IMG/VR virus record: IMGVR_UViG_3300048442_000459
Span: 1 to 21,809 of that record
Length of the DNA: 21,809 bases
Strand: one strand, 5' to 3'
From: a virus
In this document: in pieces, positions 1 through 12,055 of the stretch
How positions within the stretch are numbered: position 1 is the first letter of the stretch
Layout: each line of letters starts with the position of its first letter
Made by a program: the position numbers and the translations under genes
Notes under the pieces: generated by a model
The model's input: only the letters and a program-made list of their open reading frames with translations
Told to the model about the DNA's origin: nothing
Database searches by the model: none

Positions 1-293
1 TCAATCCATAAATTTAAATTTTTTTGATCTGGTCTTACCCACATATTATTGAAAGTAGCAGAAAGGGGAATACCAGTCTGCTCTGTAATCCACAATGCAT
101 TGATGGTAGTTCCCCTTACAGGATCTTTGACAAAGATATCTCCCATCGCATCTTGACCGAATGGTTTGATGCGGCAGGTAAAGTACAAATCATAGATCAG
201 ATCTTTATTCTTTTTCAGAAACGGAATAAAATAATCTTGTGTAAATTTCCAATCACTCTTCGGGTTGATCGGTAGACTGAAGATACTTCGCAT
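1..293 (-). CDS. Unrecognised protein, 5' part only (runs off left edge)
   Basis: The reading frame is open from the start codon to the left edge, giving at least 97 residues beginning MRSIFSLPINPKSDW. I start it at the ATG at 293-291, which has AAGAATGA upstream; an in-frame ATG at 302-300 would add three residues (MKL). An in-frame TAG a few codons further up blocks any longer start. The start lies 41 nt (or 50 nt) inside the end of the upstream 251-aa gene, which suggests translational coupling. The visible part contains DLYFTCRI, a FGQDAMGD stretch and TGIPLSATFNNMWV, with mixed hydrophobic and charged residues and aromatics. This looks like a globular alpha/beta protein, not the Gly/Ser/Thr-rich fibre proteins upstream. 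I vaguely associate such sequences with TIM-barrel-like proteins in marine myoviruses but cannot name the family. The function is unknown. The reality of the gene is well supported by its long open frame in the right strand and position. Confidence 0.75.
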   Translation of the reverse strand, partial: MRSIFSLPINPKSDWKFTQDYFIPFLKKNKDLIYDLYFTCRIKPFGQDAMGDIFVKDPVRGTTINALWITEQTGIPLSATFNNMWVRPDQKNLNLWI

Positions 294-1008
294 TAATTTC
301 ATTCTTAATTTTATCTAGTAATGGTACGTTCAATGTTTCTTCAATTCCATGGAATGTTGGAATGTTTACATCGGGAGACTCAGCATATGCTTGGAAATAT
401 TTTTGAGTTTGTCCGGTAATTTTATCCATAGAAAGTTTCATGAGACATGAATACTGAGATGCAACATCAAGGATAGCAATTTGATCTTCTTGTTTCATCA
501 TAGAAATAGAGTCTAAGTTGCCTGTACCCACTCTACCATTTGCTATCAGATCTAAGGCAGCTTGTTTACCCATCCTAGCAATCCAATACTTTCTTTCTTC
601 TTCTTCGTTCCACTCAGAAGCAGTTTTTAATTCTTCGACAGTGTTAATTTCTTCTTGGATATGTTCCACAAATACATTTAACTCGTATTGGAGTTGATTT
701 ATTTTTCTTTCCCACATCTCTAAGTCTAACTTAGTATCATCAACATCAATCTCTGCTTCTTCTATAGCAAATTTGCCATCTGCATTTGAAAGTCTGTCCT
801 CAGCAATTTTATATGCAAGAATACTCTTTCTCTTGCCAATTTTCATTTTCTCAAAGCTATGCAATCGATTTTCAATCTCAAGCATAACTTGCTTTAATTG
901 CCTATCTCCTGTGACATGTGACTTAATTACAAAATCATCAATCTGGTTTTTTGACATGCCAATAGCAACCTTCTTGGCAAGTTCAAAAATTTCTTCGGTT
1001 GTAACCAT
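253..1008 (-). CDS. Uncharacterised alpha-helical, coiled-coil-rich protein (251 aa)
   Basis: This is a complete ORF from ATG (MVTTEEIFELAKK) to TGA. The composition is unlike the fibre genes: rich in Glu, Lys, Leu and Ile, poor in Gly and Ser. Residues about 40-130 have many charged heptad-like stretches (for example LEMWERKINQLQYELNVFVE), predicting long helices or a coiled coil. I see no signal peptide or membrane segment. It starts 18 nt after the stop of the 247-aa gene, with no clear Shine-Dalgarno, so it is probably translated by coupling. Its 3' end is overlapped by the next gene. It sits at the distal end of the fibre cluster, a place where T4-like phages often keep fibre assembly factors. 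That context makes a chaperone or attachment role possible, but no motif shows it. I do not recognise the family. Confidence 0.88.
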   Translation of the reverse strand: MVTTEEIFELAKKVAIGMSKNQIDDFVIKSHVTGDRQLKQVMLEIENRLHSFEKMKIGKRKSILAYKIAEDRLSNADGKFAIEEAEIDVDDTKLDLEMWERKINQLQYELNVFVEHIQEEINTVEELKTASEWNEEEERKYWIARMGKQAALDLIANGRVGTGNLDSISMMKQEDQIAILDVASQYSCLMKLSMDKITGQTQKYFQAYAESPDVNIPTFHGIEETLNVPLLDKIKNEINAKYLQSTDQPEE

Positions 1009-1026
1009 GATAAATCAAATAATAAC

Positions 1027-1770
1027 TTAGAATGTAATACCAGGAGAAACGGGTAATTGTGATTTAGATGTTTCATCAATTCTACTGTCTTCCCTTGCCT
1101 GTTCGTATGGCATTGGAATTCCCATCTTATCCTCATATAGTCTATTTAGTTGCCTAATTGTAGTGCAATTATAGAACTCTTTTTTCAAAGTATTCATTGA
1201 GACAAATAAATCTTTAGATGCTACTCTATAAAAATTTCTTTTCTCGGTAACAGATGTCTTTAGTTGATCTACAGTAACACTTTTTGCATCTGCAAGAGAA
1301 GATAAAATGAAATCGGTATCATTCTCAATATCAGATACTAGGTACTCCCAGTTCTTTTTCTCTAAAGAAGATACACCTTCATCTAGTGCTTCAAATCTTT
1401 TGTTGAAAGTATCTTCAATAATAACTTTAGCAAATAACTTCATTGTTCTCATGACAGTATTATATCTTGTTTCTGTCATGGGAATTGCTACCTTAGCAGA
1501 CGTAGCAAAATCAGAGTAAGAAAGGTTATCAAACTCTTCATTTAATTCTGCATCAGAAGCAGAAATTTTGATAGTAGAACGGATATCACCCCAACCTCTA
1601 GTACCAAAGATTGCCATATCTTTGCCTAACTCCACCGCATACCCAGGGAGAGCAGCAACCTCTCCCTCGTCTACAGAAAAACAATTCCAATCTAGAATAT
1701 TATTAATTGGTTCAAACGACCTCAATATTGTAGCGTCGAATGTACTTTTACAGATAAAATATTTTTTCAT
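1027..1770 (-). CDS. Uncharacterised protein downstream of fibre gene (247 aa)
   Basis: This is a complete ORF from ATG (MKKYFICKSTFDATILRSF) to TAA, ending SQLPVSPGITF. A strong AGGAG lies 9 nt upstream, inside the last codons of the fibre gene. The N-terminal 70 residues look like a beta-rich small domain, with GYAVELG and an aromatic/Gly segment IFGTRGWGDIR. Residues about 75-215 are mainly helical and charged. A proline-containing, probably flexible tail follows. I see no signal peptide, membrane helix or catalytic motif. The position immediately after a fibre gene and before another alpha-rich small protein would suit a fibre assembly chaperone or a virion adaptor. This is inference from context only, and I do not recognise the family. 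Confidence 0.88.
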   Translation of the reverse strand: MKKYFICKSTFDATILRSFEPINNILDWNCFSVDEGEVAALPGYAVELGKDMAIFGTRGWGDIRSTIKISASDAELNEEFDNLSYSDFATSAKVAIPMTETRYNTVMRTMKLFAKVIIEDTFNKRFEALDEGVSSLEKKNWEYLVSDIENDTDFILSSLADAKSVTVDQLKTSVTEKRNFYRVASKDLFVSMNTLKKEFYNCTTIRQLNRLYEDKMGIPMPYEQAREDSRIDETSKSQLPVSPGITF

Positions 1771-1774
1771 TTAC

Positions 1775-2914
1775 TTAGACTCCTGAATATCCGTTTGCTA
1801 GAGTTCCATACTCCATAGCAGCACCAGAAGCTGTACCCCCAGGTCCAGACCGATTAAGTGAAGAACTAAAGGAAAAACTATGAGTGGAATAGTTGATTGA
1901 TCCTCCGGTATTATTCTGAGCGCCGTTATACATACCGTTCATAAAACCATAATCCATGCCTGTATGGAAAGTTTCTTCTCCTGTAGTTCCTGGTTTACCA
2001 ACAGATGCGAGGTTGGAACCAGAAGAAGTATCTCTTCTTGTCATAGCAGTATTAGTTTGATAACCGCCTGCCTCATTCCAGTAAGAAAATCCTTTTCTAC
2101 TACTACAGGTTTTATTAGTTCCATCTGTTCCTGGAGGAGAACCCCAAGAAGTCCATGACTGTGTAGCAAACTGGAATAGATATCCATTACCTCCTTGCTT
2201 ATACATGCCATTATCTTCACCATAACCACATGCTGGATTATTACCACCAGATCCACCAGATCCAGAAATTGTGGTGACTGATCCAGTTACTAGATCATGT
2301 CTATCTGGATTATCTCCGTTGTCACCAACAACATAAGCATACTTAAAGTCTCTCTTCATCACGGAAGTTCTGTTTCTTCCTGTTGACATACTAGTAGCAG
2401 TTCCAGCATTAGTTTCTGTAGCCATACTAAATGTGGAAACACTGGTACTATTTGTGTTCCAGTTATCACCAGTACAGTAAATATATGCTCTCATATTAGA
2501 GTCTTGTGCCCCTGCCGTATATGCGTCAGAGTACGTAATAAGATCACCTAAGTTAGTAATCGTAAATGTAGAATGTTGTAGTCTATTTACGTTTTTCCAA
2601 GAACTAGAACTTTGATATCCTGCTGCAGGATAACCTCTAGTAATTGCAAAACCTTCTTCAAAGTTAACGATAATTTCCCAGTACGCATTTGTACCATCAG
2701 ATTTAAGTACAGCGCCTACAGTAGCACCATCACCACTAGCAACTTGCGTTGGTAATGTCGAGAATGGTTGACCGTTAACTAGTAGATCGTTTGATCCAAT
2801 GTCAAGATCCCCACCCATAGTTACAGAACCATCTGTATTGAGTGAAATATTTGGTGTAGTAGAACTTCCAGCAGCTGTATATTTAAGCTGGTCTACTCTT
2901 AATTCAGATGCCAT
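1775..2914 (-). CDS. Tail fibre protein with kelch-like repeat domain (379 aa)
   Basis: This is a probable fibre or receptor-contact protein. Residues 1-85 (MASELRVDQLKY..., then GGDLDIGSNDLLVNG and GAVLKSDGTNAYW) form an N-terminal module of the kind that starts many marine phage fibre proteins and probably anchors it. Residues about 86-112 hold GFAITRGYPAAGYQ and SWKNVNR, a signature I associate with these fibres. Residues 114-379 break into six units of about 42-50 residues. Each begins with a Ser/Thr-rich strand (near 114, 158, 203, 245, 288 and 339) and ends in an aromatic-plus-GG, GD or NG turn (CTGDN, VVGDNG, KQGGNGY, EAGGY, NGMYNG, LANGY). That pattern fits a kelch-type beta-propeller. 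An AGGAGAT Shine-Dalgarno and an exact TATAAATA late octamer precede it, so it may be transcribed both alone and by read-through. The fibre role is well supported; the propeller fold is inference. Confidence 0.92.
   Translation of the reverse strand: MASELRVDQLKYTAAGSSTTPNISLNTDGSVTMGGDLDIGSNDLLVNGQPFSTLPTQVASGDGATVGAVLKSDGTNAYWEIIVNFEEGFAITRGYPAAGYQSSSSWKNVNRLQHSTFTITNLGDLITYSDAYTAGAQDSNMRAYIYCTGDNWNTNSTSVSTFSMATETNAGTATSMSTGRNRTSVMKRDFKYAYVVGDNGDNPDRHDLVTGSVTTISGSGGSGGNNPACGYGEDNGMYKQGGNGYLFQFATQSWTSWGSPPGTDGTNKTCSSRKGFSYWNEAGGYQTNTAMTRRDTSSGSNLASVGKPGTTGEETFHTGMDYGFMNGMYNGAQNNTGGSINYSTHSFSFSSSLNRSGPGGTASGAAMEYGTLANGYSGV
1780..1784 (-). promoter_or_regulatory. Ribosome binding site for the 247-aa gene
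   Basis: AGGAG on the minus strand, 9 nt before the ATG at 1770, inside the last codons of the preceding fibre gene (stop at 1777-1775). It supports the chosen start and suggests that translation of the two genes is coupled. Confidence 0.65.
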
Positions 2915-2938: not shown

Positions 2939-2946
2939 TATTTATA
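2939..2946 (-). promoter_or_regulatory. T4-type late promoter (TATAAATA)
   Basis: The minus-strand octamer TATAAATA is an exact match to the T4 late promoter consensus, which is read by the phage late sigma factor with its sliding clamp. It overlaps the TAA stop of the 3,037-aa gene and lies 24 nt before the ATG of the 379-aa fibre gene. Transcription starting a few bases downstream would give a short leader that still holds the AGGAGAT ribosome site. The position in one of the few true intergenic gaps raises confidence. The octamer could still be fortuitous in AT-rich DNA. Confidence 0.6.
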
Positions 2947-5900
2947 CAATGTTCCAACTACCACCATCAGCAACAGTGATAACAACACCATTATTTATTG
3001 TAATGGGTCCAAAACTACCAGCATTGTATCCGTTGGGGACTGTGATATTTTCATCAACAAAGTTTCTGTTAGATTTAAATGTACCATAAGTATCAATCCA
3101 TTGTTTGATACCATTAGCATAAAGAACTCTGTTATTTGCTTGGTTAACAAAGTCCTGACCTTCGATATTAACAGAACCAAGAACATGTAATTGATATGCT
3201 GGATCTGCCTTATTAACACCAACTCTAGATAGTCTGTAGATGTCCGAACCGTTAGATGCTTCAGTCCATCTAGAAGTTACAAACTCAGCATTGTTCTGGA
3301 ACAACTGACCGTTGATATTCATATCTCCTTGAATATTCAACTTATAATTTCTAACTGTAGATCCGTCAGTAGGATCGACACCTGACGTGGAAGTTGTATT
3401 AATTGTAACAGCATTATTAACGCCGCTAATTCCAAGAGCAGGAGATCCAGTGAACGTAGTGCTACCAGCAGAATCAGAAGATTCAAACGTGAAGAAGTTA
3501 TTAGATTGAGTATTGCTACCAACCTTCCAATATCTTGTAGCAGAGTTGTTGTAGAAGTTTAATCTACCATTTCCAGTATTACTAATCTGTACGGTTTCAG
3601 AGAACCTTGCCGTACCATCAACTTCCAAATCAAAGTCTGGTTCACGATTGATGCCAATACCAACATACCTAGATGCGATGATATCACCAACAACACGCAA
3701 GTACAAATCTGGTTCTGTACCTTCGAGAGTAAATCCTTCACCATACTCAGAGTTTGGTGATTGACTATCAGAATGATTGTATCTCAGTGTGCCAACTTGA
3801 GATTGGTCGGATGAAACATCACAGAATCTAATTTTTGCTCCAACAGCATTTGTAATAGAGCGAACAAAGATACCACCATCGCCACGAACATCTAAAGTAG
3901 ATAATGGACTAGTTCCAGCGTTAATACCAACTTCATTAGCAGAAACATCAACGAATAGAACACCAGAATCAACATTCAGGTCATTGGTTAATGATGTAGT
4001 TCCTGTGACGGAAGCATTACCAGAGACAGATAGATTAGATCCAGCACCAGTAATGATTAGCGAACCAGTCATGGAATCGCCTGCCTTCAGGACGTTCAGT
4101 GAAGAAGCACCTGTGATGTTTGCCGTAATTGTTCCGGCAGAGAAATTACCAGAACTATCACGAATAACAGCAGAATCTGCTACATTTGCAGTCCTAAAGA
4201 TTACATTTCCTTCGTTCCAAATTTTCTGATTGTTGATAGTGAATGCATCCGCATTTCCAACTAGAGCATTTAGAGTACCTGAGTTTGCAGTAGCGTTTCC
4301 GCCTGCAGCGATAATTGATGCTGTTCTGTGATCGTCAGAATTAGAACTAGGAACAGCTACAGAGGATCTAAAGTAGATTGACGGAGAAGATGCTTGACCG
4401 TCAATTCTTCCTAGTTTCAATAGTGCTGTACCACCATCACTTTCTAACTTACCAACATCAATAGTATTACCGTCAATAATAGAGAAGTCTTCAAACTCAA
4501 CTCTATTTGAAGCAGTACCTGCAGTAAGTGCTCCAACAAAATTGCCTGATGTTAGACTACCAATTAAAATAGTGTAATCATTGAAGTTGTCTACAGGATC
4601 ATCATTAGTAACAACGTTATCAATAGTAAAACTACCAACACCTTGAGCGTTTGCATTGTATAGGTTAATTGGATTGCCTGGTGTAAAATCGCCAGTTGCA
4701 GATGTATCTAGAATTTTTCCAGAGAAATAAATTTGATATCTTGGGAATCCAGAAAATGACTTAACAGTTAAAGAATCTCTTACTCTAGTAGACTCGATAA
4801 ATCTAGGTAATCTTTCGGTTGATAATGTACCATAGTTAATGTTTAATGCATTTTGATACCAAATTCCTTGTCTGTTATCTAACTTGTCAGCATCAAGACC
4901 AGAATCAAGACCATCATTCAGTGAGCTCCAGATCTTCGCCCAGGAACCCCAAGAGGTTTGACCTGTGCCCGATCCACGGAGATACATGTTATCATTATCA
5001 GTGAATGCAAGTTGCCTTGTTCCACCAAAACCAGCATCAAATCCAGTACCACCTGATCTGAGGGTGATAACCATATTTCTTGTTCCACCATCATTGAGTG
5101 CGTTAGCACTATTAAAGATAGTATTTGAAACGAGACCTGGTTGGAAAAAGTTTGGATTTGAAGAAGATGCTGGGTTGTTAGTACCAGTTAATAATCTAAT
5201 TGTACTACCAGACTGGTTGGAAATACTGATGTTGTATGTTCCAGCAAGTCTATCTGGTGATAATGTACCTGCGGTTATGTTACCTGCATTTGTGTAGAAA
5301 GAACCTTGTGCGCCATCTAACAAGTCAGCATCAAGACCACTATCTGCGCCAGTTTTAAGTTCTATAGAACCGTTACCTTTTGTTCCAATGTTAAACTGAG
5401 ATTTCTTATATCTTGCAACACCAATTGTTCCATAGAGGTCAGCTGAAATAGTAAGATCAGATACTCTCTGAATATCAAGAGCAACGTTTGCAAATTGTCT
5501 ATTGACAGTAGAAACTTTTGCTTGTAAAATAAGGTTTGAACCAGTTCCAATAGCGACTGGGGCATTTACAATAGTGAAGTCTCCACTATATCCACTACCA
5601 CCATCTGTAACAGTTAGCTCTGTAACTTCTCCTCCAGCAACAACAATATTTGCTTTAAGACCTGTGCCTGTGCCACCTGTAAGTGGTACGTCAAAATATT
5701 GATTATTAGTAAACCCGCCGCCACCATTAGCAACAATTACAGAATCTACAAATCCACCTTGAGTGAAAGTTGATTCAAACGTAAGAGGAGATCCGCCACG
5801 TTCAAACTCAATAATAGTTCCTAATGGAATGTCTTGTGTTACTGGATTATTGAGGGAAATTGTTGTTAATCCAGCAGCAGTGACAACACCATTAATATTT

Positions 5901-8900
5901 GTATTTGCTGCAATACCATTTACTGATGTTTTAAGTTCATGTCCGATTAGAACATCCGAGTTTGTTACGAAGATCATCGATGATGATCCGGTAGAACACT
6001 GTGCTGCCAGAGGAGCAAAATATCTTGTTTCCGCACCCTTAAGTGACTGAACTGCTAAAGCAAAGTTCTGGTCTCCTCTAAGGAAAGTAAAGGAGTTTGC
6101 AGCACCACCAGATGCAAGTCTATCTGTTTCAATAACACCAGATGTGATGTCTGTCGCAGCAATCTGGTTAGATGATAGTGATACCCAATTGTTAACATTA
6201 AACGAAGATGTGTTAATAACTCTATTAATATTAATTGTATTTGCAGTTGGAGATGTATTATCTTCAAAAGTATCTGTGTCTACAATTTTAATATTATTAA
6301 CAATAGAACCATACAATCTACTTTCTAGTAGAACATTACCCTGTGCTTGTGTTCCAGCACCAGCAGGAGCGGAGAATGTTACAGTTGGTGTAGTAGTGTA
6401 TCCTTTACCACCTTGTACGCCACCAAAATTTTCAATGGTTACTGTTACAACTTGTCCGTTTGCGATAGTACAAGTTGCATTAGCTGCTATTGCACCTGCG
6501 CTAGGATTGCCGCCTGCAAACGTAACAGTAGGAGCAACAGTATATCCAGAACCACCGTCAGTAATATTGATTTGATAAACAACACCTTCTCTATACTCGG
6601 TTGCCTGAATAGCACCAGTAGATACGCTTCCAGTAAAAATATTTCCTATAGTGAATGCAAGTGCTGGATCTGGTTGGAATCCAAGGAATAGACTGTCGTT
6701 ATCTTGGTTTAGAATAAATGATGTGGATGTATCCTGTTGGATCGCAATATCACCAGCAAGTGCTCCTTCGATAGCAGTTCTTTCTGCCTGGTCGGCAACA
6801 GTGTATACTTGGAAAGGTCTGAGTGCTGGGATCTGGTCGATAGAAATCTTACCAGAATCGGTAAGTTCAACCAATGCTCTAGGAACAGCGTTCGTAGAAT
6901 ATGGTTTGTTGATGTATGGTCCAAGGTTGTTAGTGATATAGTCTCTAACTGCCTTCTGTGTAGGTAGTTTAGAGTCGCTGGAGTTAGCACCACCAAGTGT
7001 ATTAGATGCGTCGAAACCAGTAACAACAACTGTACCACCTTTCAGTTTTAAGAATTCAACTTCCGAGATTGTAACTGTACCTGTAAAGGTAATGTTACCA
7101 GTTCTGTTCTCAATTCTAGCGAAAGTACCAACCTTAAAGTCACCTAGTTCGTCCGTACCAGAAACATATGTTCTGCCATAGTTTTCGGAAACTTGCTCGT
7201 TTGCTTCAATTTTAGTTCCACCGTTCTCAGGAAGAGCTAAGTAGTTAGTTCCGGAACCTGCAAATTCCCAAGTATGAGAAGAAGAGTTAACAATAGATGG
7301 TCTGTGTAGATTAATTGTCTTACCTTGTAAGACACTTGTGGATACTGGATTGCCAGTTGCCTTATCAGTAAGATCCATGGCACCACCAGTACCATCATCA
7401 ATAGTTAACTGAGCGGAGAAAGGTGGTCCAACAGTAACTCCGGCAACAACATCAATAAAGTATTCGATATTTGGATTTGTGTTTTCATATCCATCAATCT
7501 TGACAACATAATGCTCCAATGGTTCTCTACCAAGTCCACTAAGTGTTAGGATAGTTCTACCAGTTGGAGTAGAAGAAACATTTGAAACAGTTGCGATATC
7601 AAATGCATATGGGTCTTTACGGAAACCAGTTCCCCTTAAAGCAAAACGTCCAAAGTTGGTAGCAGAGTTTGTGATAGAAGCATAACCACCACTTTCAGAA
7701 AGAACGCCATCTTCGCAGAAAATAACGAAGACTGAAACTAACTGGGTATAACCGTCATTAATAATCTTGTATCCTGTACCACCAAAAGAAACGATCGTGA
7801 ATGCTGCCGCAACCATCGACTTACCCTGGTTGGGGAAGGATGCAGTTCCGTCTAACTCAAGACCAGGGAAGGGGCAGTTAGGTTGCTTGACCTTATCACC
7901 ATCAACCTCAGCACCGCTACCACCCAAGAAGGAGATAACAGATGCGTTCTGGGTATATGGTGATGCTTCAATGATTGGATAGTCATCATAGTCACCACGA
8001 ATTGCAATTCTATTATTACTAGCATCATTAATGAAACTATCAGAATATGTAATAATATTTGATGTATTATATAAAGTTCCGTTTGTTTTTGCTGTAGCAC
8101 CAGGGAGAAGAGTTCCATCTAAAATGTCTTCAAATAAATCCATCTCCGTAGTGATTGAAGATGTAACATTAGTACAAAGAGGTTGTGATCCATAAAGAAG
8201 AATATTCCAATCTTCAAATTTAGGAATTGGCGATGTAAGTGTTACAGGATCGTAGATGAGAATGGTAGCATCAGATTTCGCACTTGAGAAAGCATGTGTG
8301 GATCCAGATGCAGCACCAGCATTTGGTACAAGACATGTTACGGTTGTAGCACCACCACTAGAAGATACATTGCTGATAGCATAACTTTGACCGTAGTTGG
8401 AATCAAACCTAAGAGGACTTGCATGATCGTCAGGTACTCCATTAAAAGTACAACTAAACGTAAGTGCTTCTTCTGCAAAAGCAATTCTATCGCTAGTAGT
8501 TGGTATTGTAGATGGGTCTGGGAACGTTACAGTTACAGTACCAACACTTGCATCATAGGTTGCTCCAGTTGGTGTTGTGCTAATTACATCACCACCAGTC
8601 CAGTTACGTACAGCGTCTTGTGCATATTGCTTAACTCTTTGGAAAGCATAAACTGTTTCGGCACGTTGTGCTTCTGGGATACCAGTTAATTGAGTTCCTG
8701 TGAAATATAGTTCGGCAACTTCTACAATTCCTTTGTTTCCACCAAATACCAAATCCTTAATAAGTCCATCAAGAACAAGTCTGACATCTCTACGGCACTT
8801 TCTTTGGTTAATATCAGAAAGACCTAAGGAAGGATATTGTGTTTCTGTATCTGCAAGTGCTTGATCTGCAATAAGATCTTTGTTTCTAGCTATTAAATAT

Positions 8901-11900
8901 GCAGCATCTAAGTATGTTCCAGATTGATTCTTGGAAATAACATCAACCCAGAGGAATGAAAGGGTATCAATTGCAGCTCTTACATCATTACAAGCAAATC
9001 CAGTATTGTTTGCTGTTCCGTCAGCGTTTAAGAGTGATGTAGATGTGATTACTGTATCATCAAAATATCTTGTTACACTAGAATGGCGAGGAACATAAAT
9101 TGTGTCATTGACAGTACCATTGCCAATTCTCCAATTTCGCATAGCATAAACTGCTAGTTCTCTAGCATATTCAATGGCACGAACACATTGAATAATTTCA
9201 TCTTGAATAAATGCGATTTCATCATTAACAACATACTTCTGTGCTGCTTCAATAATGTTATGGTTGCTTCCAAATTCGAGGTCTCTGATTAGAGCATTAA
9301 TAAAATGCCTTGTGTCTTCACGGCATTGTTCGTCTCCATCGTTGCCTGTGCTATCAGGAGAACTGTATGAAGGATATATTTTTTGTCCTGTATCACATTC
9401 TAGTAGAATATCTGCTAGTTTTACAATACTATCTTCTGCTAAACCTGCTACTGAAGTAGATGTTGTGACGGTTGCAACACCAGTTACAATATTATCGTAA
9501 GTAAATCCACTTATGTTATAAGTTGTTCCTCCAAATGTTACAGTGCCACCTGAGATATAAGTATGTGTTGCTGTAGTTTGACCTAGGTAGATATCAAATG
9601 AATTTCCACTAATATTGTATGCAGAATAATGATCTGTTTTAAATTCCGAATTAATAATTCCAACAACTTCATCAGCAATAAAGTCGATGTTGTTTCTTAA
9701 AAATACACATGCATCTTGGAATCTTCTCTCTACTGGAGTAGCAAGAGGGAATGTGTTTGGAGAGTTGAGTAGAGATAAAGTAACTACTTTTGAAGAATTT
9801 TTAGCTACAGCAAATCCACCTGGATCAAAATTGGCGTCTGTAACTCCCGGCATTTTTTTGGGAATAACAAATCTTCTAGCACGACCATCAGCGTCATCTA
9901 GAACTTTGTAAATTCTTTGTTTTCCGTTAAGTACTGAAAGATCGGGAGAAGAAGTTGGGAGACCTTCAATTAAAATCTCCTGACCCTCCTTAAATTCGTG
10001 AGTGTTTGTTCTACCTACAAGAGCATTAGTATAGAAAACAACACCGCCAATATCTTCTGCACTACCAAATTGTTCTTCTTGGAATCCTCCTGTAGTAATA
10101 CTAGGATCTCCTTGTAAAGAAAAATCAAGTCTTACAATTGGCAGAGTTGTAGTATAGTCTTCGTCAACAGAAACAACCTCACCTTCAGCACGAATCGACT
10201 TGATAGAAGTAGTATCAATTGATTCATTAACAGGAGTAGCAGAGTTAATTGTATAACTACCACCAACACCATCTCCACTCCATGTTGGAGCATTTAGAAT
10301 AGGGAAGAATGTTACATCCCAAATATTGTTAGCAGAAAGAGTGCTATCAATAGACTCTACTTCATAAAATCCTGTAAATGGAGCACCACTAGATGGAGTA
10401 GCTACAATTTGAATAAAAGTTCCTGGAGGAATAACCGATGTTGGATCAGTAGTTAACCTGAGTTTGTTGTCGCCCTGTTGTTGTGTTACTGTTAGAGAAA
10501 GTGAAGAACCCGCACCTGCGGAAGTAATATATTCAAATCTCTCACCCTCAACGAAAGAACCGCCAATCAATTGGACGTTAATATCACCAGTTACAAATGC
10601 GCTAGCTCCAGTAGTTGTGTTAAAATTAACACCAATAATTTTTGCTCTAGCGCCAGTATTAATACCCTTTACTGTTAACCCTGTTTGTAAAGTCGAGAGA
10701 CCTGTATTATTTTGGAATAGAACATTGAACTGTTGTGGTCCAAAAATTTGATGACCGATTGGAAAATCGGTTCCAAAGTCACCATTTGCTTCTTTGTCAA
10801 TGATAATTCTTTGCTTGTCGTCAAAGACCATAGCAAAATCCCAGGTCTCAACAGAGTCACCATTGGAATCAATTTGGTCTCTATATGTAACACCAGTTAC
10901 ATAGTTCTTATCACCAAACTTGAAGATGTGCTTACCAGCATTTGCAGGTCTAATAATTACAAGACGAAGGTTATCACCAACAACCGATGCATCGGGCGGC
11001 AAAGAAATTGGGTTATCTTCTACATAGTCACCACCAGAAACAATAAGAGTCTCCTTGACACCAGGAGTCGCCCATGCAAGCTGTGCCGCTTTCTTGATAG
11101 AACGAACTGGGTTTACTGCAGAACGACCATCATTTAGATCACTACCAATTGTTTGAGAAACATAGATACGACCACCAACGTCATTCGTTGCTAGGTTGAG
11201 GACGTATTCTGTAGTAGCAATCTTATCTGATCTATCTCCTAGTAGAGGAGTAATAGAACGAGGGAACTCTCCAGATGGACCAGTTTCGCCAAACTTATAT
11301 GCATTCTGGTCTACTACACGGAAACCGATATGCTTTAATTGTACTTCTCCGTTTAGTTCAGTTCCATCCTGATGTTCCGGTGCATCTGAACCTGTCTGAC
11401 CTGTATTTACTGCTTGATATACATTAGCACCAAAGTATCTGTAGGAATCTTTTTGGAGAATAACACCAGAAGACCATAGCGTACCAGTATTATTGACGTA
11501 AGTTTTTAGAGATGGTCCTCTGAACGCCATGTTTGGCGTAACAAAGTTGTCAATATCTAGGTTTAGAATTCTTGCCGTATCAGAAATGATAGACGTAGAT
11601 GTTCTAATAGCACCGTTAATATCTAGTTCAAAGTCAACAGTATCAAGAACAGCAGTAGCAGTAGCACCCGCACCACCACCTTCTGTAATGCTTAAAGCAG
11701 GAGCAACTGTATATCCACTACCTTGTTCGTTAACAGCAATAGATACAACTTTTCCATTGAAAATAAAGGCAGACGCGAGAGCTTGAACACCACCTGGTTC
11801 ATTTGGAGCTGCAATTGTTACTGTTGGATTGACAGTATATCCAGAACCACCAGTATCAATAACAATATTATTGACTCTATTGCCAGTTCTGTTGATACCA

Positions 11901-12055
11901 ACACGAGGTAATGCAGTCTGGGAATCTAGTTGAGCTCGGAGAATTTCTTTTTCTCCAGACCCACTACCAGTCCTGATAGTTACTTCATTATCACCGATAA
12001 ATTTAGGACCAACGCCTCTAATTTTTTCTTTATCGGAATTAATATGAAAACTCAT
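2942..12055 (-). CDS. Giant tail-fibre-like structural protein (3,037 aa)
   Basis: A mosaic fibre or baseplate-periphery protein beginning MSFHINSDKEKIRGVGPKF. Approximate residues: 60-130, two GSGYTV repeats; 294-410, start of a right-handed beta-helix-like region (IYVSQTIGSDLNDGR, then GGDYVEDNPISLPPDASVVGDN); 770-1160, two helical units each with C-R-x-D-x-R followed by DLxFG (Cys911 and Cys1087) and ending in RNW; 1365-1490, a second beta-helix-like stretch rich in SxxNS and GFRKDPYAFD. Further on are 1700-1790, a LPTQKAVRDYI linker and a DIAIQQDTSTSFIL module; 1825-1895 and 2110-2160, more GSGY repeats; 2236-2280 and 2381-2420, two DSGLDAD-LDxxQG fibre repeats with a knob-like segment between (SWGSWAKIW); C-terminus, VDGTARFS-type fibre modules and a GGSWNIV end. 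No S74 self-cleaving chaperone motif is seen. A 44-nt gap with a late-promoter-like element precedes it. The exact virion location is unknown. Confidence 0.93.
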   Translation of the reverse strand: MSFHINSDKEKIRGVGPKFIGDNEVTIRTGSGSGEKEILRAQLDSQTALPRVGINRTGNRVNNIVIDTGGSGYTVNPTVTIAAPNEPGGVQALASAFIFNGKVVSIAVNEQGSGYTVAPALSITEGGGAGATATAVLDTVDFELDINGAIRTSTSIISDTARILNLDIDNFVTPNMAFRGPSLKTYVNNTGTLWSSGVILQKDSYRYFGANVYQAVNTGQTGSDAPEHQDGTELNGEVQLKHIGFRVVDQNAYKFGETGPSGEFPRSITPLLGDRSDKIATTEYVLNLATNDVGGRIYVSQTIGSDLNDGRSAVNPVRSIKKAAQLAWATPGVKETLIVSGGDYVEDNPISLPPDASVVGDNLRLVIIRPANAGKHIFKFGDKNYVTGVTYRDQIDSNGDSVETWDFAMVFDDKQRIIIDKEANGDFGTDFPIGHQIFGPQQFNVLFQNNTGLSTLQTGLTVKGINTGARAKIIGVNFNTTTGASAFVTGDINVQLIGGSFVEGERFEYITSAGAGSSLSLTVTQQQGDNKLRLTTDPTSVIPPGTFIQIVATPSSGAPFTGFYEVESIDSTLSANNIWDVTFFPILNAPTWSGDGVGGSYTINSATPVNESIDTTSIKSIRAEGEVVSVDEDYTTTLPIVRLDFSLQGDPSITTGGFQEEQFGSAEDIGGVVFYTNALVGRTNTHEFKEGQEILIEGLPTSSPDLSVLNGKQRIYKVLDDADGRARRFVIPKKMPGVTDANFDPGGFAVAKNSSKVVTLSLLNSPNTFPLATPVERRFQDACVFLRNNIDFIADEVVGIINSEFKTDHYSAYNISGNSFDIYLGQTTATHTYISGGTVTFGGTTYNISGFTYDNIVTGVATVTTSTSVAGLAEDSIVKLADILLECDTGQKIYPSYSSPDSTGNDGDEQCREDTRHFINALIRDLEFGSNHNIIEAAQKYVVNDEIAFIQDEIIQCVRAIEYARELAVYAMRNWRIGNGTVNDTIYVPRHSSVTRYFDDTVITSTSLLNADGTANNTGFACNDVRAAIDTLSFLWVDVISKNQSGTYLDAAYLIARNKDLIADQALADTETQYPSLGLSDINQRKCRRDVRLVLDGLIKDLVFGGNKGIVEVAELYFTGTQLTGIPEAQRAETVYAFQRVKQYAQDAVRNWTGGDVISTTPTGATYDASVGTVTVTFPDPSTIPTTSDRIAFAEEALTFSCTFNGVPDDHASPLRFDSNYGQSYAISNVSSSGGATTVTCLVPNAGAASGSTHAFSSAKSDATILIYDPVTLTSPIPKFEDWNILLYGSQPLCTNVTSSITTEMDLFEDILDGTLLPGATAKTNGTLYNTSNIITYSDSFINDASNNRIAIRGDYDDYPIIEASPYTQNASVISFLGGSGAEVDGDKVKQPNCPFPGLELDGTASFPNQGKSMVAAAFTIVSFGGTGYKIINDGYTQLVSVFVIFCEDGVLSESGGYASITNSATNFGRFALRGTGFRKDPYAFDIATVSNVSSTPTGRTILTLSGLGREPLEHYVVKIDGYENTNPNIEYFIDVVAGVTVGPPFSAQLTIDDGTGGAMDLTDKATGNPVSTSVLQGKTINLHRPSIVNSSSHTWEFAGSGTNYLALPENGGTKIEANEQVSENYGRTYVSGTDELGDFKVGTFARIENRTGNITFTGTVTISEVEFLKLKGGTVVVTGFDASNTLGGANSSDSKLPTQKAVRDYITNNLGPYINKPYSTNAVPRALVELTDSGKISIDQIPALRPFQVYTVADQAERTAIEGALAGDIAIQQDTSTSFILNQDNDSLFLGFQPDPALAFTIGNIFTGSVSTGAIQATEYREGVVYQINITDGGSGYTVAPTVTFAGGNPSAGAIAANATCTIANGQVVTVTIENFGGVQGGKGYTTTPTVTFSAPAGAGTQAQGNVLLESRLYGSIVNNIKIVDTDTFEDNTSPTANTININRVINTSSFNVNNWVSLSSNQIAATDITSGVIETDRLASGGAANSFTFLRGDQNFALAVQSLKGAETRYFAPLAAQCSTGSSSMIFVTNSDVLIGHELKTSVNGIAANTNINGVVTAAGLTTISLNNPVTQDIPLGTIIEFERGGSPLTFESTFTQGGFVDSVIVANGGGGFTNNQYFDVPLTGGTGTGLKANIVVAGGEVTELTVTDGGSGYSGDFTIVNAPVAIGTGSNLILQAKVSTVNRQFANVALDIQRVSDLTISADLYGTIGVARYKKSQFNIGTKGNGSIELKTGADSGLDADLLDGAQGSFYTNAGNITAGTLSPDRLAGTYNISISNQSGSTIRLLTGTNNPASSSNPNFFQPGLVSNTIFNSANALNDGGTRNMVITLRSGGTGFDAGFGGTRQLAFTDNDNMYLRGSGTGQTSWGSWAKIWSSLNDGLDSGLDADKLDNRQGIWYQNALNINYGTLSTERLPRFIESTRVRDSLTVKSFSGFPRYQIYFSGKILDTSATGDFTPGNPINLYNANAQGVGSFTIDNVVTNDDPVDNFNDYTILIGSLTSGNFVGALTAGTASNRVEFEDFSIIDGNTIDVGKLESDGGTALLKLGRIDGQASSPSIYFRSSVAVPSSNSDDHRTASIIAAGGNATANSGTLNALVGNADAFTINNQKIWNEGNVIFRTANVADSAVIRDSSGNFSAGTITANITGASSLNVLKAGDSMTGSLIITGAGSNLSVSGNASVTGTTSLTNDLNVDSGVLFVDVSANEVGINAGTSPLSTLDVRGDGGIFVRSITNAVGAKIRFCDVSSDQSQVGTLRYNHSDSQSPNSEYGEGFTLEGTEPDLYLRVVGDIIASRYVGIGINREPDFDLEVDGTARFSETVQISNTGNGRLNFYNNSATRYWKVGSNTQSNNFFTFESSDSAGSTTFTGSPALGISGVNNAVTINTTSTSGVDPTDGSTVRNYKLNIQGDMNINGQLFQNNAEFVTSRWTEASNGSDIYRLSRVGVNKADPAYQLHVLGSVNIEGQDFVNQANNRVLYANGIKQWIDTYGTFKSNRNFVDENITVPNGYNAGSFGPITINNGVVITVADGGSWNIV
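4797..4917 (-). repeat. DSGLDAD fibre module, copy 2
   Basis: This encodes DGLDSGLDADKLDNRQG followed by WYQNALNINYGTLSTERLPR in the 3,037-aa protein (from about residue 2381). It is the second copy of the module at 5225-5350, about 145 residues further on. The D-ADxLD-xQG-xYxNAxNIxxGTLxxxRL pattern is conserved between the copies. This is a typical tail-fibre shaft element. Confidence 0.7.
5225..5350 (-). repeat. DSGLDAD fibre module, copy 1
   Basis: This encodes GADSGLDADLLDGAQGSF followed by YTNAGNITAGTLSPDRLAG in the 3,037-aa protein (from about residue 2236). It is paired with the copy at 4797-4917. The residues in between (about 2300-2380, with W-G-S-W-A-K-I-W) resemble a pyocin-knob-like element that separates shaft modules. 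Confidence 0.7.
8590..9740 (-). repeat. Two alpha-helical repeat units inside the giant fibre protein
   Basis: This encodes two related helical units. Unit 1 has DACVFLRNNIDFIADE, then CREDTRHFINALIRDLEFG, then IIEAAQKY and AMRNW. Unit 2 has DAAYLIARNKDLIADQ, then CRRDVRLVLDGLIKDLVFG, then IVEVAELY and AVRNW. The conserved cysteines (residues 911 and 1087) are 176 residues apart. Unit 1 also carries a beta-rich insert (HTYISGGTVTFGG...) between its first and second helical parts. The flanking sequence is beta-structured. Confidence 0.7.

What the first reader, a model, noticed from the sequence alone, without database searches (positions are those of the whole stretch)
1778..2575. Six kelch-like units predict a beta-propeller at the fibre tip
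Residues 114-379 of the 379-aa protein can be cut into six units of about 42-50 residues. They start at TFTITNLGD, TFSMATETN, RHDLVTGS, LFQFATQSW, MTRRDTSSG and NYSTHSFSF, and each ends in an aromatic-x-x-GG, GD or NG turn. A regular six-fold repeat filling exactly the part after the anchor module fits a six-bladed propeller, a fold suited to glycan or protein receptor binding. I know of no characterised receptor for such fibres.
Basis: partly seen in the sequence, partly recalled or inferred. Interest (0 to 1): 0.55.

Follow-up and report, generated by a model that had tools for sequence, protein, structure and literature searches.

The report
Six-bladed propeller on cyanophage fibre protein
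A marine cyanophage protein of unknown function is predicted to end in a six-bladed propeller on a short fibre-like stalk, and wherever it was found it came with the same three partner genes, which makes it a likely but unproven host-attachment part.

Summary
The six-fold repeat is real: residues 86-379 repeat with a period near 44 (single sequence, 0 of 100 shuffles reach the score). A confident AlphaFold2 model (pLDDT 84-97 per ten-residue block over 91-370) matches six-bladed kelch propellers over residues 90-372 (Z up to 29.6). The domain begins at residue 89, inside the supposed anchor, and its last strand is the C-terminal one.

"Fibre tip" and "receptor binding" remain inferred. For: the gene follows a tail-fibre gene, the propeller is C-terminal, stalks and heads are exchanged between phages. 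Against: no variable face, and it evolves more slowly than GC352 and GC353 beside it.

The family is PHROG 1417 / T4-GC 351, named "sericin 1 precursor-like" or hypothetical. New here: the propeller is inherited with GC352, GC353 and GC354 (11 of 11 complete genomes with it, 0 of 6 without), in a block that co-isolated P-HM1 lacks. GC354 joins a predicted TIM barrel to a methyltransferase domain.

The parts
2660..2914 (-). N-terminal stalk or anchor module, residues 1-85
   Evidence: Low-confidence in the monomer model (blocks 1-8 pLDDT 51-77); replaced by other N-termini in relatives
1799..2650 (-). Six-bladed propeller domain, residues 89-372
   Evidence: Model and structural matches over about 90-372; repeat from residue 86
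2543..2650 (-). Blade 1, strands b-d, residues 89-124
   Evidence: Strands of the model, blade assignment by hand
1799..1822 (-). C-terminal strand 365-372, taken as strand a of blade 1 (ring closure; pairing inferred from kelch topology)
   Evidence: Strand in the model; alignment to closed kelch rings to residue 371-372
2399..2512 (-). Blade 2, residues 135-172
2270..2365 (-). Blade 3, residues 184-215
2147..2233 (-). Blade 4, residues 228-256
2000..2107 (-). Blade 5, residues 270-305 (strand a only two residues in the model)
1868..1969 (-). Blade 6, residues 316-349
1027..1770 (-). GC352 (phrog_1604), partner gene of unknown function
253..1008 (-). GC353 (phrog_1409), partner gene of unknown function
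3..302 (-). GC354, first 100 aa only, cut by the window edge
   Evidence: full copies
2942..12055 (-). Upstream 3037-aa tail-fibre protein
   Evidence: phrog_5342 tail fiber protein, E 0

Best explanation
The 379-aa protein is a virion appendage adhesin of cyanomyoviruses. A short exchangeable N-terminal module (1-85) docks on, or forms, a fibre-like stalk; the C-terminal six-bladed kelch-type propeller (89-372) is the distal head and binds a conserved component of the host surface, most likely a glycan. It is gained and lost as a block with GC352, GC353 and GC354, which would serve its assembly or modification. Shown by computation: the repeat, the fold prediction, the C-terminal position, the modular N-terminus, the block difference between P-HM1 and P-HM2, and the co-inheritance. 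Inferred: presence in the virion, distal position, oligomeric state, receptor binding, the glycan, and the roles of the partners.
For: Repeat; model and kelch matches; distant homologue from S-RIM12 predicted with the same fold. The gene lies next to a tail-fibre protein and, in other cyanophages, behind fibre genes. The same propeller sits on different N-termini, and proteins of P-SSM7, S-CAM22, Syn30 and S-MbCM6 keep a related N-terminus without the propeller. P-HM1 and P-HM2 differ by the whole block at one site. Co-inheritance of the four genes (counts 7, 108, 109).
Against: No virion, binding or localisation data. Conservation does not differ between the two faces or between loops and strands. 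The propeller is more conserved than GC352 in 33 of 33 and than GC353 in 32 of 32 loci compared, unlike a fast-evolving receptor binder. The window's anchor resembles the upstream fibre only weakly (11.1 bits).
Confidence: 0.5

Rival explanations
1. The propeller is a structural or decorative virion part (whisker, collar, sheath decoration or fibre joint) that binds another phage protein, perhaps GC352 or GC353, rather than the host.
For: Slow evolution and no variable face; obligate company of GC352 and GC353. Phage CBB carries kelch-type proteins, one found in the virion, and has unassigned tail whiskers (PMC5259590, passages).
Against: The gene is dispensable: P-HM1 and other cyanophages lack it. 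Exchange of heads on related N-termini is the pattern of adhesins.
Confidence: 0.23
2. The four genes form a modification module: GC354 changes a sugar or protein of the host surface or of the particle, and the propeller presents or recognises the target.
For: GC354 has a Methyltransf_24 domain in 28 of 28 members and a model whose methyltransferase part matches, among many others, sugar O-methyltransferases MycF and SpnH (Z 13.5-13.9). The four genes are co-inherited even where GC354 lies apart, in S-ShM2.
Against: Many unrelated methyltransferases and barrels score within one unit; no substrate is known; GC354 may act on something else.
Confidence: 0.14
3. The protein is not in the virion but works inside the infected cell as a kelch-type adaptor that binds a host protein.
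For: The closest solved folds are intracellular adaptor domains such as Keap1 and KLHL17, a resemblance of fold only.
Against: A fibre-like N-terminus shared with short fibre-region proteins, and a place in the fibre cluster.
Confidence: 0.07
4. The propeller is a catalytic head such as a glycosidase.
For: Endosialidases of phages K1F and phi92 carry trimeric propeller domains on a stem (PMC4901313, passages).
Against: The rows listed are kelch domains or designed SAKe rings nearly throughout; no enzyme family was hit. Sialidase residues were not tested.
Confidence: 0.05

Closest known systems
PHROG 1417 / T4-GC 351, 'sericin 1 precursor-like protein' (P-HM2 PHM2_098, Syn19, P-SSM4, Syn33, S-ShM2)
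   Same: Orthologous propeller, same neighbours GC352-354
   Different: The window copy has a short stalk of the P-HM2 type and no GC514 between it and the fibre gene
Kelch six-bladed propellers (Keap1, KLHL17; SAKe designs)
   Same: Predicted fold, Z 29.1-29.6 for the best rows over 260-271 residues
   Different: 9-15% identity in those rows; no Kelch sequence model matches
Staphylococcus phage phi11 receptor-binding protein (PMC4901313, passages)
   Same: Propeller domain behind an N-terminal stem in a tail protein; proposed glycan site
   Different: Five blades, a coiled-coil stem, and a C-terminal tower after the propeller
Kelch-type proteins of jumbo phages (CBB_552, BcepSaruman, EL)
   Same: Predicted propeller matches in BFVD (E 6e-12 to 3e-6); CBB_552 is in the virion (PMC5259590, passages)
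   Different: Only 11-13% identical; CBB proteins carry recognised Kelch signatures; their stalks were not examined here
Phage SU10 nozzle protein (PMC9509320, passages)
   Same: A propeller in a phage tail
   Different: Seven blades, part of the tail channel, not an appendage head

Membership tests
PHROG 1417 / T4-GC 351 | Profile match over the propeller | tested here: met
   E 1.1e-71, residues 60-375
Kelch-type six-bladed propeller (fold) | Six blades in a closed ring | tested here: met
   By prediction only: pLDDT 84-97 over 91-370, Z up to 29.6 to six-bladed kelch rings over 90-372. Strand pairing at the closure inferred; coordinates not available
Pfam Kelch families (sequence) | Kelch motif above the curated cut-off | tested here: not met
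   No Kelch hit in the window protein; 1 of 60 members at E 0.056; Kelch_1 and Kelch_4 silent in 4 phage genomes, with controls ringing
Phage receptor-binding protein | Part of the virion, at the host-facing end | not testable with these tools
   No proteome covers it; S-SM1 lacks the gene
Phage receptor-binding protein | Modular: exchangeable N-terminal stalk, distal C-terminal head | tested here: met
Phage receptor-binding protein | Variable binding face, a common but not universal feature | tested here: not met
   Mean conservation 0.603 for DA+BC loops, 0.615 for AB+CD loops, 0.606 for strands, 59 rows
Phage receptor-binding protein | Binds a host receptor | not testable with these tools
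   Needs a binding assay
phi11-type RBP (five-bladed platform) | Five blades followed by a C-terminal tower | tested here: not met
   Six repeats and no domain after the propeller
Endosialidase-type tailspike | Catalytic residues of the sialidase active site | not tested
   No alignment to a sialidase was made
Sericin | Homology to silk sericin, as the record name suggests | not tested
   The name is the depositors'; no sericin model was compared
U32 peptidase-like domain (GC354 N-terminus) | TIM barrel of the U32 type | tested here: inconclusive
   5d88 Z 13.5, rmsd 4.7, 209 residues, but other barrels within one unit; no Pfam U32 hit listed
SAM methyltransferase (GC354 C-terminus) | Methyltransf_24 above cut-off | tested here: met
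   28.2 bits against 26.3 in L001; 28 of 28 members match at E up to 1

The most novel reading that the evidence does not exclude
A four-gene cyanophage module, exchanged as a block, couples a six-bladed kelch-type propeller adhesin to its own modifying enzyme: GC354, a barrel-plus-methyltransferase protein, chemically alters the propeller, its stalk or the host glycan it recognises, and GC352 and GC353 are dedicated assembly partners. An adhesin with an obligate private modification enzyme would be a new arrangement in phage attachment.
Probability: 0.2. Interest if true: 0.75.

Novelty: new member of a known kind. Interest (0 to 1): 0.5.

Why it matters
What cyanomyovirus appendage proteins bind is largely unassigned (recalled, from no call). 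A fold for a family found in 123 phage records under an empty name, with a natural with/without pair (P-HM2 and P-HM1, isolated from one water sample on one host), lets one ask directly what a swappable appendage head does. The strict company of GC352-354 names partners that carry no function in the libraries searched, and makes the module testable by gene removal.

Tried and rejected
Sequence routes to function gave nothing: no relative of the propeller in PDB sequences at E up to 10, and only noise-level hits in Pfam and NCBIfam (DUF863 E 0.047, TIGR04089 E 0.0034, both below cut-off). GC354 has no PDB sequence relative, GC352 and GC353 only hits at E 0.08 or worse. A hypervariable face was sought and not found. 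A second propeller in the loci held at that time was sought: the profile hit 205 ORFs, lowest 186.7 bits, no locus with two (plus-strand frames only). A cellular source was sought: the genome scan gave one locus, on a MAG contig of the same length and match place as IMG/VR locus L052, read as a phage contig (a pattern scan, so not exhaustive). GC352 was used to look for a propeller-less sister of the window: 4 loci, each with the propeller.

The phrase 'Kelch-repeat-containing protein ... unique to P-HM2' in PMC3037559 (section 16) raised the question whether this protein was already recognised. In the P-HM2 record that name stands on PHM2_035, a glycine-rich protein without a match to the propeller profile, while GC351 is PHM2_098. 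I read P-HM2 annotation at 1-50000, 78401-103567 and 133807-183806, not the rest; the paper's Table S5 was not seen.

Ten paper searches were made; in their listings and abstract openings I saw no account of this protein's fold. The two that pair sericin with cyanophage or Synechococcus found 0 papers. Of the papers, PMC3037559 was seen as outline and sections 14, 15, 16 and 26 plus passages; PMC4901313, PMC5259590, PMC6224464, PMC9146016, PMC9509320, PMC10743442 and PMC12923769 as passages only.

Full report
What is there. The window is a 21,809-base virus record. ORF 1775-2914 (-) encodes 379 aa of PHROG 1417 (E 1.1e-71, unknown function), called T4-GC 351 and 'sericin 1 precursor-like' in several cyanomyovirus records. 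The nearest named copy is PHM2_098 of Prochlorococcus phage P-HM2 (45% identity). P-HM2 has the order fibre (GC513), GC514, GC351, GC352, GC353, GC354; the window has the same order without GC514.

The repeat. The six unit starts lie at residues 116, 161, 205, 246, 291 and 341. In the single sequence, local self-alignment at offset 44 scores 111 against 30.6 (SD 8.1) in shuffles, 0 of 100 reaching it, with peaks again at 88 and 92. In a 60-sequence profile the offset has z 13.3, and the best score over offsets, 37.6, exceeds all 40 shuffles (highest 28.1). HHalign on that alignment reports it only weakly (probability 4.2%, P 0.0097). The repeat alignment starts at residue 86.

The fold. AlphaFold2 on the window protein with 59 IMG/VR relatives gives mean pLDDT 85.2 and pTM 0.77; the blocks from 91 to 370 lie between 84 and 97, those from 1 to 80 between 51 and 77. 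Foldseek's first solved match is Keap1 4xmb (E 2.3e-13, TM-score 0.78 by target). The second aligner gives Z 29.6, rmsd 2.3-2.5, over 263-271 residues to three SAKe designs and KLHL17, and 29.3 to Keap1 1x2j, across model residues about 90-372. Read as four strands per blade, blade 1 is 89-124 plus the C-terminal strand 365-372, and blades 2-6 are 135-172, 184-215, 228-256, 270-305 and 316-349. Among predicted viral proteins the first match is an S-RIM12 homologue (33% identity, E 4.5e-28), and kelch-named proteins of unrelated phages follow.

Sequence versus fold. By score it is no Pfam Kelch member: 1 of 60 relatives touches Kelch_4 at E 0.056, and Kelch_1 and Kelch_4 find nothing in 4 whole phage genomes although control genomes ring.

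Stalk and head are separate modules. The propeller sits behind a stalk of about 85 aa (window type), about 140 aa or more (Syn19 type), or a much longer open frame (7 of 193 orthologous frames are 600-718 aa; start codons were set mechanically). Conversely, P-SSM7, S-CAM22, Syn30 and S-MbCM6 have short proteins in the same region with a Syn19-like N-terminus and no propeller. Syn19 GC351 matches phrog_5906, the family of the short P-SSM7 protein, over residues 1-66 (E 5.9e-16). GC349, GC350 and GC514 likewise share N-termini with several PHROGs. The window's own anchor resembles one stretch of the 3037-aa fibre only weakly (11.1 bits).

Difference between near-twins. P-HM1 and P-HM2 come from the same water sample and host and share 200 genes at 83% mean identity (PMC3037559, section 16). 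Their DNA aligns to the last base of GC514 and again after the block: P-HM2 has GC351, 352, 353, 354, 585 and 586 (5.85 kb) where P-HM1 has GC515, GC516 and a 2OG-Fe(II) oxygenase (2.0 kb). One 106-base match (74%) joins a spot inside the P-HM2 block to the region just beyond the P-HM1 block. The whole P-HM1 record has no match to any of the four profiles; the same profiles ring in P-HM2.

A co-inherited set. Profiles of GC351, GC352 and GC353 each match the same 11 of 16 complete genomes; GC354 matches those 11 and gives one hit with three stops in S-MbCM6 that I count as noise. With P-HM1 this makes 11 of 11 genomes with the propeller and 0 of 6 without. The 11 were chosen because they have the propeller, the other six because they lack it or for their proteome, so this tests the partners, not the frequency. 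In P-SSM3 GC354 is interrupted by stops, and in metaG-MbCM1 GC352 and GC353 each by one. All 146 distinct propeller proteins with at least 1,800 bases behind them have GC352 and GC353 in the same locus; of 17 propeller-less loci none has GC352, GC353 or GC354. In the phage collection of 50,697 records the propeller (window query, E up to 10), GC353 and GC354 each match 123 records, with the same split by organism name, 77/38/8. Many of these are isolates of S-RIM2 and S-RIM12, and I did not compare the lists record by record. In S-ShM2 GC354 lies apart (from 41,390, GC351 from 32,431) and is still kept.

GC354. The window holds its first 100 aa. The copy in L001 has Methyltransf_24 above cut-off (28.2 against 26.3 bits), and 28 of 28 members match. 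A model of middling quality (pLDDT 77.5, pTM 0.53) matches the U32 peptidase 5d88 over residues 3-281 (Z 13.5, rmsd 4.7) and SAM methyltransferases over 366-568, among them the sugar O-methyltransferases MycF and SpnH (Z 13.5-13.9). Methylenetetrahydrofolate reductases and many other methyltransferases score within one unit or so, so the substrate is open. Conserved cysteines (CWGGC; C326, C330, C333, C336) lie in or beside low-confidence loops. That U32 proteins can carry an iron-sulphur cluster is recalled, from no call.

How it most likely works. I commit to an appendage adhesin: stalk to the particle, propeller to a conserved host-surface component. C-terminal position, module exchange and the fibre neighbourhood support it. 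Two results speak against a fast-changing host-range factor: conservation is equal on both faces and in strands, and the propeller is more conserved than GC352 in 33 of 33 and than GC353 in 32 of 32 loci compared. A conserved ligand, or a partner within the particle, would fit both. Virion presence is untested: S-SM1, whose proteome PMC3037559 describes (section 26), lacks the gene. Experimental evolution of cyanophage S-TIM4 put mutations mostly in tail-fibre and baseplate genes (PMC6224464, passages), but I did not link them to this gene.

What is known. phi11 RBP carries five-bladed propellers in a trimer with a proposed GlcNAc site (PMC4901313, passages); phage CBB has kelch-type proteins, one in the virion (PMC5259590, passages); SU10 has a seven-bladed propeller in its nozzle protein (PMC9509320, passages); propeller lectins occur on fibres of contractile injection systems (PMC12923769, passages). 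A propeller in a phage tail protein is thus a known kind. I saw no account of this family's fold or its partners in the ten paper searches made.

Noticed in passing
window 3-302 (-); full copy L001:7613-9319: GC354: predicted TIM barrel with conserved cysteines fused to a Methyltransf_24 domain, present in the complete genomes that carry the propeller and absent from six without it.
   Followed up: partly
L007:11995-17845 against L228:18176-20179: Block difference between co-isolated P-HM2 and P-HM1 directly behind GC514.
   Followed up: yes
L229:27671-28591 (P-HM2 PHM2_035): Named 'kelch repeat-containing protein' but glycine-rich and without a match to the propeller profile; the name looks misplaced.
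   Followed up: partly
L009:1523-2569, L009:85-1521, L007:16488-17393, L206:6596-7489: The fibre-region cassette holds several small proteins with shared N-termini and different C-termini. By eye some look like fibrinogen-type or glycine-rich heads, which no Pfam model confirmed; Syn19 GC348 has a sub-threshold CBM_4_9 match (E 2.6e-4).
   Followed up: partly
L015:2499-3266 and P-SSM3 record 114201-115894: GC352 and GC353 of metaG-MbCM1 and GC354 of P-SSM3 are broken by stops in the records; assembly errors or decay not told apart.
   Followed up: no
L227 (PBPE01000072.1): A contig binned as a Dehalococcoidia MAG carries this phage gene and has the same length as the contig of IMG/VR locus L052: probably a mis-binned phage contig.
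   Followed up: no
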